Assembly (NCBI GenBank): GCA_024679565.1
Contig: JAIBDD010000001.1
Coordinates: 62,001-126,000 of the forward strand
Direction: 5' to 3'
Origin: Bacteroidota bacterium
Lineage (GTDB): Bacteria; Bacteroidota; Bacteroidia; NS11-12g; UBA9320
Length of the DNA: 64,000 nucleotides
Shown: in pieces, positions 13,011-17,628 of the stretch
Numbering within the stretch: the stretch's first letter is position 1
Layout of the letters: each line of letters starts with the position of its first letter
The notes under the pieces: generated by a model
The model's database searches: none
The model's input: the letters and a program-made list of their open reading frames with translations, nothing else
What the model was told of the DNA's origin: nothing
Translations under genes and position numbers: made by a program

Positions 13011-13625
13011 CTACAGGTAATACGCGTGGTAAAAGAGTCTTAGACTGAATGCAATGAGCAAGATGCCAATACCCTTATACAGTTTAATTAAGAAGTGAGG
13101 TTCAATAACCCTACGCAAATATTTAGAACCAAAAACTTTCAGCGTGTCTGTAGTGATGATGCCCAATAGAGCAGCGCAAAGGAACATAACTACCTTATAT
13201 TCAGTGTCATAACTTAGTTTTGCTTTTCCAATCATGGCAATCCAAACCATAAAAACAAATGGGTTTACGAAATTGATTAGAAATGCTTTAGTGAAAAATG
13301 TCACATAATCTCTTTTCTTTTTTACCCTCACTGTTGTTCCTGGGAGTTTAGGTTTAAAAATGTACCCTAAACCAAATACCACCAAGATAGCGCCTCCAAC
13401 TACGGCTAACCAAAACTCGTTTTGCTTGGTGCCATTTTCAAATAGCTTAGAGGCCCAGAAGTAGCACAAAATGATCACTGCTGCGTCACTCATCACAATC
13501 CCAATGGCGGCAGATATGCCACTTCTGGTACCGTGTTCAAGACTAATTTGCAACAGGTAAAAAAATACAGGGCCGATGAAAAACATCATGGCTAAACCAA
13601 AAAGCAAACCTTGCACTACGGACAT
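13011..13625 (-). CDS. LysE-family translocator
   Basis: A 204-residue inner-membrane protein with about six hydrophobic helices and the family opening FGLAMMFFIGPVFFYLL, followed by a small-residue-rich GISAAIGIVMSDAAVI helix. LysE/RhtB proteins export amino acids; the substrate here is not predictable. A near-consensus -7 box (TATTTTCG, 13637-13630) ends four bases before the ATG, so the transcript may be leaderless. Confidence 0.9.
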   Translation of the reverse strand: MSVVQGLLFGLAMMFFIGPVFFYLLQISLEHGTRSGISAAIGIVMSDAAVIILCYFWASKLFENGTKQNEFWLAVVGGAILVVFGLGYIFKPKLPGTTVRVKKKRDYVTFFTKAFLINFVNPFVFMVWIAMIGKAKLSYDTEYKVVMFLCAALLGIITTDTLKVFGSKYLRRVIEPHFLIKLYKGIGILLIAFSLRLFYHAYYL

Positions 13626-13752
13626 GGTGCGAAAATATGTAAAGATACGGTGAAGCGCATGCGTCTAATCATAAGATTAATTAAGTGTTATTGCGCTGCC
13701 AATTGTGCGAAAATCTTACTCATTGTGAATAGGTTGTTATCATAGTTGATAA

Positions 13753-14154
13753 GACTCAGGTTATGCTGATGGAACAGTTACTGCAGCTCAGTTTATTCGG
13801 CCATATGATGTAGGTGTATATGATGCTGGGAATGTATATGTAGCAGATGATCACTCCAACAGAATCCGTAAAATCTCTTCATCTGGGGTAGTCTGGGGTA
13901 GTTACCAAACTTGCAGGTTGTGATTCGTTGGTTTCACCAAGTGGAAATTATACTTGGATAAGGTCAGGCACGTATATCGATACTATAACAAATGGCGGAG
14001 GCTGCGATAGCATTATCACTATCAACTTAACAATTAAAGCTACGCCAACACCATTGAAGGGCAAGCCTTACAACTTGATTTATCGAGTCAAACAATGGGA
14101 ATCTACTTTATCATAATCGATTCTGGTGAATCGTTTAAATTCATCAAAGAGTAG
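13753..14154 (+). pseudogene. Decayed T9SS-sorted NHL-repeat protein
   Basis: Three frames must be joined. From 13753 comes an NHL repeat (GYADGTVTAAQF, then GNVYVADDHSNRIRKISSSG). A 10-bp tandem duplication at 13883-13902 then breaks the frame; removing one copy restores the NHL ending SSGVVTKLAG. The second frame (13899-14050) has NYTWIRSGTYIDT and GCDSIITINLTI, a repeat common in T9SS cargo. The third frame (14062-14154) gives the end of a type A sorting domain (LDLSSQTMGIYFIII, ending FKFIKE and TAG). A stop lies just upstream and there is no start or signal peptide. This fills most of the 13626-14299 gap. Confidence 0.8.
13883..13902 (+). repeat. 10-bp tandem duplication (CTGGGGTAGT x2)
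   Basis: Two perfect, adjacent copies at 13883-13892 and 13893-13902. The length is not a multiple of three, so the duplication shifts the NHL-repeat frame into a stop at 13921. Confidence 0.9.
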
Positions 14155-14203
14155 TGAGAAAACGTTTAAATGCTTGAAAAGTAATTGCTTTCAGGTATAT
14201 ATT

Positions 14204-14238
14204 AAAAAGCGATCAGTCTACTGACTGGTGGCTTTTTT
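14204..14238 (+). terminator. Rho-independent terminator of the decayed T9SS gene
   Basis: AAAAAGC (14204-14210) and CAGTC pair with GACTG and GCTTTTT around a TACT loop, ending in a T-tract. It lies 50 bp after the TAG of the decayed gene, so the remnant kept its original 3' end. Confidence 0.8.
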
Positions 14239-14275
14239 GTAAGTAGAAACCACTTTACATATATGTTTAGAGTCT

Positions 14276-14283
14276 TATATTTG
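14276..14283 (+). promoter_or_regulatory. Promoter -7 box for TMTC-like gene
   Basis: TATATTTG is an exact TAnnTTTG match. Transcription would begin near 14290, downstream of the in-frame GTG at 14285, so the ATG at 14300 is the better start. Confidence 0.5.
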
Positions 14284-14299
14284 AGTGTTCAGTAATAGT

Positions 14300-16285
14300 A
14301 TGAGAGAAATCCTAAAGTCGTTAACCTCCGTTGATAAGAAAGGAATTGGAATCATTTGGTTATTAGCCGTGATAGTTTTTGGCAATGGTATTCAAGGGGA
14401 GTACTTAATGACATGGGATGATAATCAACAAATAGTTGAAAATGAAGATGTTAAGACCTTGACGTTTTCTTCAATTAAAAACTACTTCACAAAATACTAC
14501 GTTGGTTCGTACCAACCTTTAGCCTCTTTTTCGTTCGGTATTGAATATGCCATTTTCGGTAAAAACGCTAAAGTTCATCACGTTACAAATTTGATTCTAC
14601 ACCTATTAAATATTGTCTTGGTGTATTGCTTAGTGCTTGCATTATTTCAAGAAAAGTACATACCATTAATTGTGACGGCATTTTTTGCCATCAATCCCTT
14701 TCAGACTGAAGTTTTAGGGTGGATATCTACCAGGAGTACACTTCTTTACGCTTTTTTCATTTTGTGGGCATCAAACATTTTTGTTTTTCATATAAAGAAA
14801 GACGAAGGTAAAATAACAGCAGCTACATTGTTCAAAGTATTGTTCTTATACGTCCTTGCTACACTCACAAAATCCGCATCCATTGTTTTTCCATTCACAT
14901 TAATGCTGCTCTGCGTGTTCGTAGTTAGAAAATGGAATCGTAAACTGATACTTCAAATACTGCCCTTTTTTGGGGTATCAATTGCCGCTGGACTGATAAG
15001 TATATCTTCTCGTCAATCGGGTGGAGATACGTTTAGTAAGTTCTATTCCTTTTATTCAATTAAAGAGCATATAATCATACGGCTTAAGACCTTATATTTT
15101 TATTTGATTGAGCCATTTTATCAAACCAAGCTTCACATATATCGCGCCTTTATAACCAGTCCAGATCAAATAACAGGTGAGCTATTGCCAGACAGTTATG
15201 TATGGCAAGGATTAATCGCATTGGTCGTATTACTATTGTTGGTCGTTTTAGCCTTTCGATATCGTAGAAAGGATGTTGGGAGACTCTTAATTTTTAGCTT
15301 GGTTTGGTTTTTTGTAAATATTGGGCTGCACTTTAATTTTTTCGCAGTGAGCATCAATATGTTAGCAGAACGTTATATGTATTTGCCAATTATCGCACTT
15401 GCGCTTTTATTGGTTGCGTTGATAAAAATGATGGTGATTTCGTATCCCAACATAAAGGTAAAGACTGCATACATGTTGGTCTTTGTGCCGCTGTTTGTTT
15501 TTTATGGAATCACTTCTTATAAACAAGTTGGAACTTGGAAAAATGAAATGAGTTTGTATAAACACGATATCAAATACACTCAATATCATTATAGCTTTCT
15601 GCAATTAGGCCGGATGTATCACAAAAGAAAACATTTGCAAAAATCTTTGGAAACGTTCAATGCACATGTAAAAATGAATCCAAACGAAACTAAAATCTAT
15701 CTTTATCGTGCTTTATTGATTGCTGACATGGGAGATGTTGCCTACGCCGAAAAAGACCTGTACAGGATACTCGATTTAAGGAAAAAAACCTCAGGGGGCA
15801 CGGATAAAAAAAAATTATTTGGTCAAGCGTTTTATCACCTCGGATTGATCTGGCAAAAAAGCGACAAGGCCAAGTCATTGAATTATTTAGATAGTGCCAT
15901 TCAATATCAAAACGCTGATGCGGTTGTGCTCAAACAACAACTGAATCAGTTTAAAAGTAATGGGCTACCAACAACCTCTAAATCAGGATACGATTACAAA
16001 TCAAAGCTTTCAGAGAAAGACATGGACGAGGGGGGGAGTGTCTATGAAATTGTTCCAAAAGCAATTCAAGTAGGGGAATACGATAAAGCACTGTTTTATA
16101 TAGATATGATGCAATATGTCGCACCTGATTCAGTAATGACCTACATATACAAAGCAGTAGCATTAATTGGCGTTAAACAATACGCTGAAGCGCAAAGTGT
16201 TTTGGAAGATGCGATAGTTGGTAAAAACTTATCATCACCGCGTTTACAAGAATTGCTAAGTGTTGCTAAAAATGGAATCGAGTAA
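14300..16285 (+). CDS. GT-C glycosyltransferase-like membrane protein with TPR tail (TMTC-like)
   Basis: A 661-residue protein. The first 390 residues hold about ten membrane helices with an early acidic motif (TWDDNQQ, near 39-44) in the first large loop, as in GT-C enzymes that use lipid-linked sugars. The LINPFQTEVLGWIS-type segment (here AINPFQTEVLGW) and the C-terminal tetratricopeptide repeats (about 405-655) match the eukaryotic-like TMTC protein O-mannosyltransferase architecture seen in many bacteria. The acceptor is unknown; envelope or secreted proteins are plausible. ATG 14300 was chosen because the -7 box would place the transcript start after the upstream GTG. Confidence 0.78.
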   Translation: MREILKSLTSVDKKGIGIIWLLAVIVFGNGIQGEYLMTWDDNQQIVENEDVKTLTFSSIKNYFTKYYVGSYQPLASFSFGIEYAIFGKNAKVHHVTNLILHLLNIVLVYCLVLALFQEKYIPLIVTAFFAINPFQTEVLGWISTRSTLLYAFFILWASNIFVFHIKKDEGKITAATLFKVLFLYVLATLTKSASIVFPFTLMLLCVFVVRKWNRKLILQILPFFGVSIAAGLISISSRQSGGDTFSKFYSFYSIKEHIIIRLKTLYFYLIEPFYQTKLHIYRAFITSPDQITGELLPDSYVWQGLIALVVLLLLVVLAFRYRRKDVGRLLIFSLVWFFVNIGLHFNFFAVSINMLAERYMYLPIIALALLLVALIKMMVISYPNIKVKTAYMLVFVPLFVFYGITSYKQVGTWKNEMSLYKHDIKYTQYHYSFLQLGRMYHKRKHLQKSLETFNAHVKMNPNETKIYLYRALLIADMGDVAYAEKDLYRILDLRKKTSGGTDKKKLFGQAFYHLGLIWQKSDKAKSLNYLDSAIQYQNADAVVLKQQLNQFKSNGLPTTSKSGYDYKSKLSEKDMDEGGSVYEIVPKAIQVGEYDKALFYIDMMQYVAPDSVMTYIYKAVALIGVKQYAEAQSVLEDAIVGKNLSSPRLQELLSVAKNGIE

Positions 16286-16362
16286 GGTTATTAACGATTA
16301 AGTGGACAATTGTTCTTTATCAACAATCTAAAGGTTCAATTCATTAAACTGTTACGCAATCG

Positions 16363-16374: not shown

Positions 16375-17628
16375 ATGGATCAATCCACTCAAGTTGTCTG
16401 TCCGAAATGCGGTGAAAACATTGATGTTAACACCTTAGTTGCGCATCAAGTTGAAGAAAGTCTAAAATCCAAGTACGAAGCAGAAAAGAAGAGAAATCAA
16501 CAAGTCCTGCAAGAGCAACAAAAAGCACTTCAACTTAAAGAACAGGCGTTTGAAGAAACACGTCGTAAAGAAAATGAGTTGTTTCGTGAGCGCTTAGAGG
16601 CGAAACTTAAGGAAGAAGCCAAAAAGCAGGAAATAAAAATTCAGACCAAAATTGACGAAGAGCAGTCAGAACGTATTGCCTTGATTGAAAAAGAGCTTGC
16701 TCAAAAGTCAGAACAGATTAAGGAGCTCAATAGAACTAAAGCGGAAATCGAACAGCTTAAGAGAGAAAAAGCGGAAGTAAAAGACAAACTAGAGGTTGAG
16801 TTACAGCAAAAACTAAATGCGCAATTAGGAGAGGAGCGTATAAAAATTCAGAAACTAGAGCAGGAGAAAAACGAGTTAAAACTTCGAGAGTTAGCCAAGC
16901 AGTTAGAGGACCAAAAAAAGCTGACAGACGACATGAAGAGAAAGCAGGAGCAAGGGTCCATGCAACTTCAAGGAGAAATACAAGAGTTGGCTATTGAAGA
17001 GTGGTTAATGGCAGAATTCCCGCTAGACACGGTGGATGAGATTAAGAAAGGCGCAAGGGGTGGAGATTGCATGCAAATTGTAAATACACGGTTACGCCAG
17101 AATTGTGGTAAAATTTACTACGAAAGCAAGCGTACGAAAGACTTTCAAAACGCATGGATAGAGAAGTTTAAAGACGATATTAGAGACAGAAATGCCAATA
17201 TTGGCGTGTTGGTTACAGAGGTAATGCCTAGTGATATGGATCGTTTGGGCTTAAAAGATGGAATTTGGATCTGTAATTTTGAAGAATTTAAAGGATTGAG
17301 CAAGGTTCTTAGACAATCCATTGTGATGTTAGACCAAAGCGTCGAAACCCAGGCCAATAAAGGAGATAAAATGGGTATGTTGTACGATTTCTTGACAAGT
17401 AATGAATTTAAATTACAAATTGAAGGGATTGTAGATGGTTTTACAACAATGCAAACGGATTTAGATTCTGAAAGAAGATCGATGCAACGTATTTGGAAGT
17501 CACGCGAGAAGCAAATAGAGCGCGTGATTAACAATACGGTGGCCATGTATGGCTCTATTAAAGGCATAGCTGGCAATGCGATAGGTAATATTCAGGCTTT
17601 GGAATTAGGCCCAGCCGACGACGAGTAA
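16375..17628 (+). CDS. DUF2130 protein with zinc ribbon and coiled coil
   Basis: A 417-residue cytosolic protein. It opens with a CPKCG zinc-ribbon half-site (CxxC near 9-12), continues as a very charged Lys/Glu/Gln-rich coiled coil (about 30-205) and ends with the DUF2130 domain (about 205-400), which contains ARGGDCMQIV and GKIYYESKRTKDFQNAWI. The last motif resembles a restriction-like nuclease core (Y-E-S-K), so a DNA-related role is often suspected but not shown. It has its own promoter-like box and terminator, so it is a single-gene unit. Confidence 0.88.
   Translation: MDQSTQVVCPKCGENIDVNTLVAHQVEESLKSKYEAEKKRNQQVLQEQQKALQLKEQAFEETRRKENELFRERLEAKLKEEAKKQEIKIQTKIDEEQSERIALIEKELAQKSEQIKELNRTKAEIEQLKREKAEVKDKLEVELQQKLNAQLGEERIKIQKLEQEKNELKLRELAKQLEDQKKLTDDMKRKQEQGSMQLQGEIQELAIEEWLMAEFPLDTVDEIKKGARGGDCMQIVNTRLRQNCGKIYYESKRTKDFQNAWIEKFKDDIRDRNANIGVLVTEVMPSDMDRLGLKDGIWICNFEEFKGLSKVLRQSIVMLDQSVETQANKGDKMGMLYDFLTSNEFKLQIEGIVDGFTTMQTDLDSERRSMQRIWKSREKQIERVINNTVAMYGSIKGIAGNAIGNIQALELGPADDE

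What the first reader, a model, noticed from the sequence alone, without database searches (positions are those of the whole stretch)
13753..14154. T9SS/NHL-repeat gene broken by a 10-bp tandem duplication
Reading three frames recovers an NHL repeat, a T9SS-cargo repeat and a type A sorting-domain tail with its terminator. The break after the NHL repeat coincides with a perfect duplication of CTGGGGTAGT; deleting one copy restores the NHL motif exactly. The direct join from LAG to CDSLVSPS also hints at an internal deletion. This looks like a recent scar on an already shortened gene, or a phase-variable surface gene.
Basis: partly seen in the sequence, partly recalled or inferred. Interest (0 to 1): 0.58.

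Follow-up and report, generated by a model that had tools for sequence, protein, structure and literature searches.

The report
Remnant of a giant secreted surface-protein gene
A 400-base scrap is what is left of a very large gene for a secreted surface protein that related species still carry at the same place; the small duplication that breaks it is real but is only one of several injuries, so it is a dying gene and not an on-off switch.

Summary
CTGGGGTAGT is perfectly duplicated at 13883-13902, and three frames give an NHL blade, one "CDS...SPSG" repeat and a T9SS type A tail. It is a pseudogene fragment. There is no start, a stop lies just before the NHL blade, both domain joins look like deletion junctions, and the tail needs a further frame change, so the duplication alone does not explain the break and phase variation is not supported. 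Comparison of five genomes of the genus shows what it was. G003, and the 5' end in G002, have a giant secreted-protein gene divergent from the same LysE-family gene. G003 also has a tail of the same kind directly before the same DUF2130-like gene; its contigs break inside. G004 keeps only the terminator, and G001 lost the whole segment plus its neighbour. Most divergence from intact homologues is synonymous, so inactivation is probably recent. The closest intact homologues, seven giant genes in G004, are more interesting than the relict. Most are followed by a serine recombinase whose 3' end abuts tRNA genes, 99% identical in this genome and G004. Their NHL blades form six-bladed propellers with an almost invariant DNA framework and five hypervariable codons per blade.

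The parts
13753..13893 (+). one decayed NHL blade (DSGYADG...KISSSGVV)
   Evidence: 70% identical to NHL repeats of intact giant genes in G004; PF01436 E=0.011, below cut-off
13883..13902 (+). perfect tandem duplication of CTGGGGTAGT, shifts the frame by one base
13901..13918 (+). end of the NHL blade (VTKLAG) joined directly to the CDS repeat; inferred deletion junction
   Evidence: linker present in intact G004 genes
13919..14038 (+). one 'CDSxxSPSG...GCDSIITINLTIK' repeat (my descriptive name; no database family)
   Evidence: 0 families in Pfam and NCBIfam
14039..14056 (+). second inferred deletion junction with a frame change (ATPTP into TIEGQ)
14047..14154 (+). C-terminal half of a T9SS type A sorting domain and its stop
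   Evidence: 71% to seven G004 tails; 74% over 34 residues
14204..14239 (+). terminator of the lost gene; its counterpart remains as an orphan in G004
13011..13625 (-). LysE-family transporter gene, left synteny anchor
14300..16285 (+). membrane/TPR protein gene, right neighbour, shared with G004, absent from G001-G003
16375..17628 (+). conserved coiled-coil protein (DUF2130-like by my recall), right synteny anchor

Best explanation
The element is a unitary pseudogene: the last 400 bases of a giant T9SS-secreted surface-protein gene that once filled the space between the LysE-family gene and the DUF2130-like gene. Shown: the relict's anatomy, the frame breaks, the presence of a giant gene at this place in G002/G003, and its complete or near complete loss in G001/G004. 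Inferred: the intact protein was exported through the Sec and T9SS routes and anchored at the cell surface by its type A tail; deletions removed its N-terminus, the rest of its repeat arrays and the front of its tail; and the 10-bp tandem duplication (slippage) is one of the late scars. It now makes no product.
For: Three homologous pieces in the right order but in two frames, with no open frame longer than 74 codons through them. G002 and G003 have, divergent from the LysE gene, a secreted-protein gene with a signal-like N-terminus, 59% identical to each other; the G003 frame ends at the contig edge in ATINPDVCDSYTSPSGKTWT, the same repeat. On another G003 contig a T9SS tail (17 of 34 residues identical to the relict's) lies about 245 bases before the DUF2130-like gene, so both flanks of the locus hold ends of such a gene. 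G004 keeps LysE-TPR synteny with a terminator hairpin at the homologous spot but no gene before it (75% over 115 columns, E=1e-12). G001 lost window positions about 13730-16301. Relict versus intact G004 homologue: dN 0.13, dS 0.72 for 32 tail codons; dN 0.28, dS 1.31 for 44 NHL codons, so most of the divergence was under constraint.
Against: G002 and G003 are broken assemblies: no single contig shows LysE, giant gene and DUF2130 together, and in G002 the DUF2130-like gene lies elsewhere. The relict tail is closer to the element-borne G004 tails (74%) than to the G003 tail at the locus (50%), so a later insertion or gene conversion from that family is possible. The NHL part of the G003 gene has not been seen. 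The dN/dS counts are short and near saturation.
Confidence: 0.83

Rival explanations
1. The fragment is a debris piece of a mobile serine-recombinase element of the kind that carries giant T9SS genes in G004, inserted here and then deleted down to 400 bases.
For: Its NHL and tail pieces are closest to the seven element-borne genes of G004; the element is present in this very genome on contig C51.
Against: No tRNA gene in the window; neither the 325-aa ORF nor the recombinase is found near it (searches place them on C51 and C20 only); a giant gene sits at the same place in G002/G003, and the terminator is shared with G004's empty place.
Confidence: 0.13
2. A phase-variable surface gene that is switched by gain and loss of the 10-bp unit.
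For: The unit is perfect, out of frame and at a domain boundary.
Against: Only two copies; no frame exists to be switched on; upstream stop and a second downstream frame change; gene lost in relatives.
Confidence: 0.02
3. Assembly or sequencing error in an intact gene.
For: This genome is a fragmented draft (54 contigs), with long repeats missing at contig ends.
Against: The relict lies inside a 151-kb contig between unique genes, with both inferred deletions besides the duplication; one error cannot make all of them.
Confidence: 0.02

Closest known systems
T9SS type A sorting-domain cargo proteins (PF18962 / TIGR04183)
   Same: Tail pattern of the sorting domain's second half, followed by stop and terminator
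   Different: Only about 36 residues remain, below both curated cut-offs; no signal peptide and no protein
NHL-repeat beta-propellers
   Same: One blade with the GNVYVAD and IRKI core
   Different: A single blade cannot close a propeller; the intact homologues have arrays that are mostly of six
Giant element-borne T9SS genes of the congener G004 (its contigs match MAG AE_MB266, CALSTB01, by length and coordinates)
   Same: NHL, CDS and tail modules 64-74% identical
   Different: Those are 2,000-residue-class genes at other places, with linkers and about 800 residues between the last CDS repeat and the tail end
Contingency (phase-variable) loci
   Same: Tandem repeat that alters the frame
   Different: Two copies only and no gene left to switch

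Membership tests
T9SS type A cargo protein | C-terminal sorting domain above the curated score | tested here: not met
   PF18962 16.7 bits against 27; TIGR04183 14.6 against 23 for the relict; met by the intact G004 homologue (45.8 and 41.3 bits)
T9SS type A cargo protein | signal peptide at the N-terminus of the same open frame | tested here: not met
   no open frame through the pieces; a signal-like N-terminus is present in the G002/G003 gene at the locus (my reading)
NHL-repeat protein | several blades closing a propeller | tested here: not met
   one blade only; the G004 homologue has arrays mostly of six, modelled as a six-bladed propeller
Phase-variable gene | otherwise intact frame with a hypermutable repeat | tested here: not met
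Phase-variable gene | copy number differs between isolates | not testable with these tools
   one genome of this species was available; none of the 4 congeners showed the relict at this locus
Pseudogene at an orthologous place | relatives carry an intact homologue at the same place | tested here: inconclusive
   both ends of a homologous gene at the two flanks in G003 and the 5' end in G002, on contigs that break inside
Serine-recombinase element | recombinase gene, tRNA target and element ends next to the gene | tested here: not met
   no tRNA in the window and no recombinase or 325-aa ORF near the relict; element end motifs were not searched for in the window

The most novel reading that the evidence does not exclude
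The relict is a fossil of a surface-recognition repertoire: giant T9SS proteins made of six-bladed NHL propellers with an almost invariant DNA framework, each blade offering five hypervariable residues on one face (about 30 per propeller). Copies travel between species on serine-recombinase elements that insert at tRNA 3' ends, while resident chromosomal copies decay. It would be a bacterial, mobile counterpart of the hypervariable WD40 sensors of fungal incompatibility genes.
Probability: 0.3. Interest if true: 0.72.

Novelty: new member of a known kind. Interest (0 to 1): 0.36.

Why it matters
By itself the relict is an ordinary case of lineage-specific loss of a giant surface gene, seen at different stages in five congeners. 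It matters as a pointer: the same family, intact elsewhere, has near-identical repeats with hypervariable codons, sits on recombinase elements shared almost unchanged between species whose DNA at the LysE locus differs by about 30%, and appears to be missing from broken assemblies.

Tried and rejected
Phase variation: rejected, see above. Paralogues in the own genome: the DNA search found only the relict and two chance matches (E 0.43 and 0.80), but the giant genes next to contig ends C51 and C20 are not assembled, so absence there is weak evidence. Diversity-generating retroelement as the cause of the hypervariable codons: reverse transcriptase (PF00078) found in 0 of 5 congeneric genomes at E<=0.001, while 3 of 14 control genomes were positive; no separate template-like copy was recognised among the 47 pattern matches in G004, all of which lie within the known arrays. 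Frame breaks in three G004 copies (L040, L045, L046) as evidence for switching: not used, because the indels sit mostly in the hypervariable codons, as consensus errors in near-identical repeats would. Composition profile, the DNA-similarity collections, viral scans and Rfam were not used.

Papers. Searches: none of the listed titles or abstract starts described T9SS giant genes on serine-recombinase elements or NHL arrays with hypervariable codons; two searches returned no paper at all. This is a search of an open-licence library only. PMC12222747: abstract and impact statement read. PMC5704250: passages read. PMC1805685: listing only.

In one search, 13 tails were compared, but the script found a true tail for only 7 (relict, G004 element, G003 locus, L064 which is the same G003 sequence, L067, L073, L076); the other 6 rows (L065, L066, L069, L070, L072, L075) were wrong stretches and were ignored. 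Loci L138-L141 and L133-L137 were fetched but not analysed. A translation of L124 in the wrong frame was discarded.

Full report
What is there. The 10-base unit CTGGGGTAGT is perfectly doubled at 13883-13902 and occurs nowhere else in the window. It lies where an NHL blade (13753-13893, frame 1) continues into VTKLAG and a CDS-type repeat (13901-14038, frame 2). A T9SS type A tail follows back in frame 1 (about 14047-14151), with a stop at 14152-14154 and a terminator-like hairpin at 14212-14229. By chance about 0.15 perfect tandem duplications of period 10-15 are expected per 64 kb (60 Markov sequences), and one is seen, so the duplication is notable only because of where it lies.

Why it is not a gene. 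There is no start, a TGA stands in frame just before the NHL piece, the duplication shifts the frame by one, and the tail needs another frame change. In intact homologues the NHL array is followed by a linker before the next CDS repeat, and the last CDS repeat lies roughly 800 residues before the protein's end. The relict lacks both stretches, so both joins are best read as deletions (inference).

What it was. Five genomes of the genus were compared. (i) The window genome G000: LysE-family gene, relict, terminator, TPR gene, DUF2130-like gene. (ii) G001 (LysE protein 92% identical): alignment stops at 13729 and resumes at 16302, so relict and TPR gene are both absent. (iii) G004 (75%): LysE and TPR gene in synteny with only 122 bases between the aligned parts; a terminator hairpin stands at the homologous position with no gene before it. 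(iv) G003: divergent from LysE, a secreted protein of more than 500 residues that runs off the contig in the same CDS repeat; on another short contig, a T9SS tail about 245 bases before the DUF2130-like gene, with a terminator between. (v) G002: a homologue of the G003 N-terminus (157 of 266 aligned positions) at the same place, running off the contig; its DUF2130-like gene is elsewhere. The simplest account is an ancestral giant gene at this place, lost to different extents. Which losses are independent was not tested with a tree.

Age of the decay. Against the closest intact homologue, the tail piece has dN 0.13 and dS 0.72 (32 codons) and the NHL piece dN 0.28 and dS 1.31 (44 codons). The gene therefore seems to have been under constraint for most of its separate history and to have broken late. 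The counts are small.

The living relatives. The best matches to the relict are seven giant genes in G004 (7 tails), whose contigs match MAG AE_MB266, CALSTB01, in length and coordinates. Six of the seven tails are followed by a 325-residue ORF without a Pfam or NCBIfam family (it looks MerR-like to me, from recall), 204 bases after the stop in the six measured. Four have a full-length serine recombinase after it and one a truncated recombinase (PF00239 E=8.5e-26, PF07508 E=4e-6). Recombinase 3' ends abut tRNA-Met, tRNA-Leu and tRNA-Glu in 3 of 4 full-length G004 copies. The left ends of 6 copies share GGGGAATCAGA..GTTATCGAACTTTT, and in 4 of these 6 the flank ends in GTAG; all four right ends read TTTGGTA. 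I infer a 3-base core, GTA. The same 325-residue ORF and recombinase, 99.1% identical over 2,955 bases to G004, lie at a tRNA-Met in the window's own genome (contig C51), where the contig begins inside the element. The LysE region of the two genomes is only about 71% identical. This points to recent transfer. At the same tRNA-Met, G001 has a different recombinase (55%). Recombinases of the wider family also abut tRNA genes in G018 (tRNA-Glu) and G015 (tRNA-Ser), with other neighbours upstream.

Hypervariable blades. Across 53 NHL blades in five of the G004 genes, 127 of 132 framework nucleotides (codons 3-51 without five) are at least 95% the same and 41 of 44 third positions are invariant, whereas all 15 nucleotides of codons 14, 15, 17, 32 and 33 vary. 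Nine arrays were cut out with 8, 6, 6, 5, 6, 6, 6, 6 and 4 blades (the 5 is cut by the slice edge). A six-blade array is modelled as a propeller (mean pLDDT 83, pTM 0.89); the best solved matches include Teneurin-like protein, NHL domains and the designed Pizza6 propellers. By strand order, the variable residues lie in the turn before the first strand and in the turn between strands two and three, which are on the same face (inference). The pattern resembles fungal HET-D/E WD40 repeats, described as near-identical by concerted evolution with hypervariable sites under diversifying selection, and not recoverable from short-read assemblies (PMC12222747, abstract). No reverse transcriptase was found in the 5 genomes, which speaks against a diversity-generating retroelement.

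Relation to the finding. The relict itself is an ordinary decayed gene. The living family is the part worth following, and I have not shown that the relict's own ancestor had hypervariable propellers or was ever mobile.

Noticed in passing
G004 loci L040-L046, L120-L125; G000:C51:1-2955 (L112): Giant T9SS genes followed by a 325-aa ORF and a serine recombinase that abuts tRNA 3' ends; recombinase part 99% identical between two species.
   Followed up: partly
L041, L042, L045, L046, L040 (NHL arrays): NHL blades with an almost invariant DNA framework and five hypervariable codons per blade, in arrays mostly of six.
   Followed up: partly
L040, L045, L046: Single-base indels that break the frames of three G004 copies sit mostly in the hypervariable codons; either consensus errors or real.
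   Followed up: no
G000:C51:1 and G000:C20:33094: Both contigs end at the same 141 bases of the element, so copies of the giant gene in the window's genome are probably unassembled; the C20 copy of the 325-aa ORF is truncated after about 33 residues.
   Followed up: partly
G001:C57 (L114) and G000:C51 (L112): The same tRNA-Met site holds two different recombinases (55% identical) in two sister species.
   Followed up: no
window 13730-16301: G001 lacks this whole segment, relict plus TPR gene; the TPR gene is also absent from G002 and G003.
   Followed up: partly
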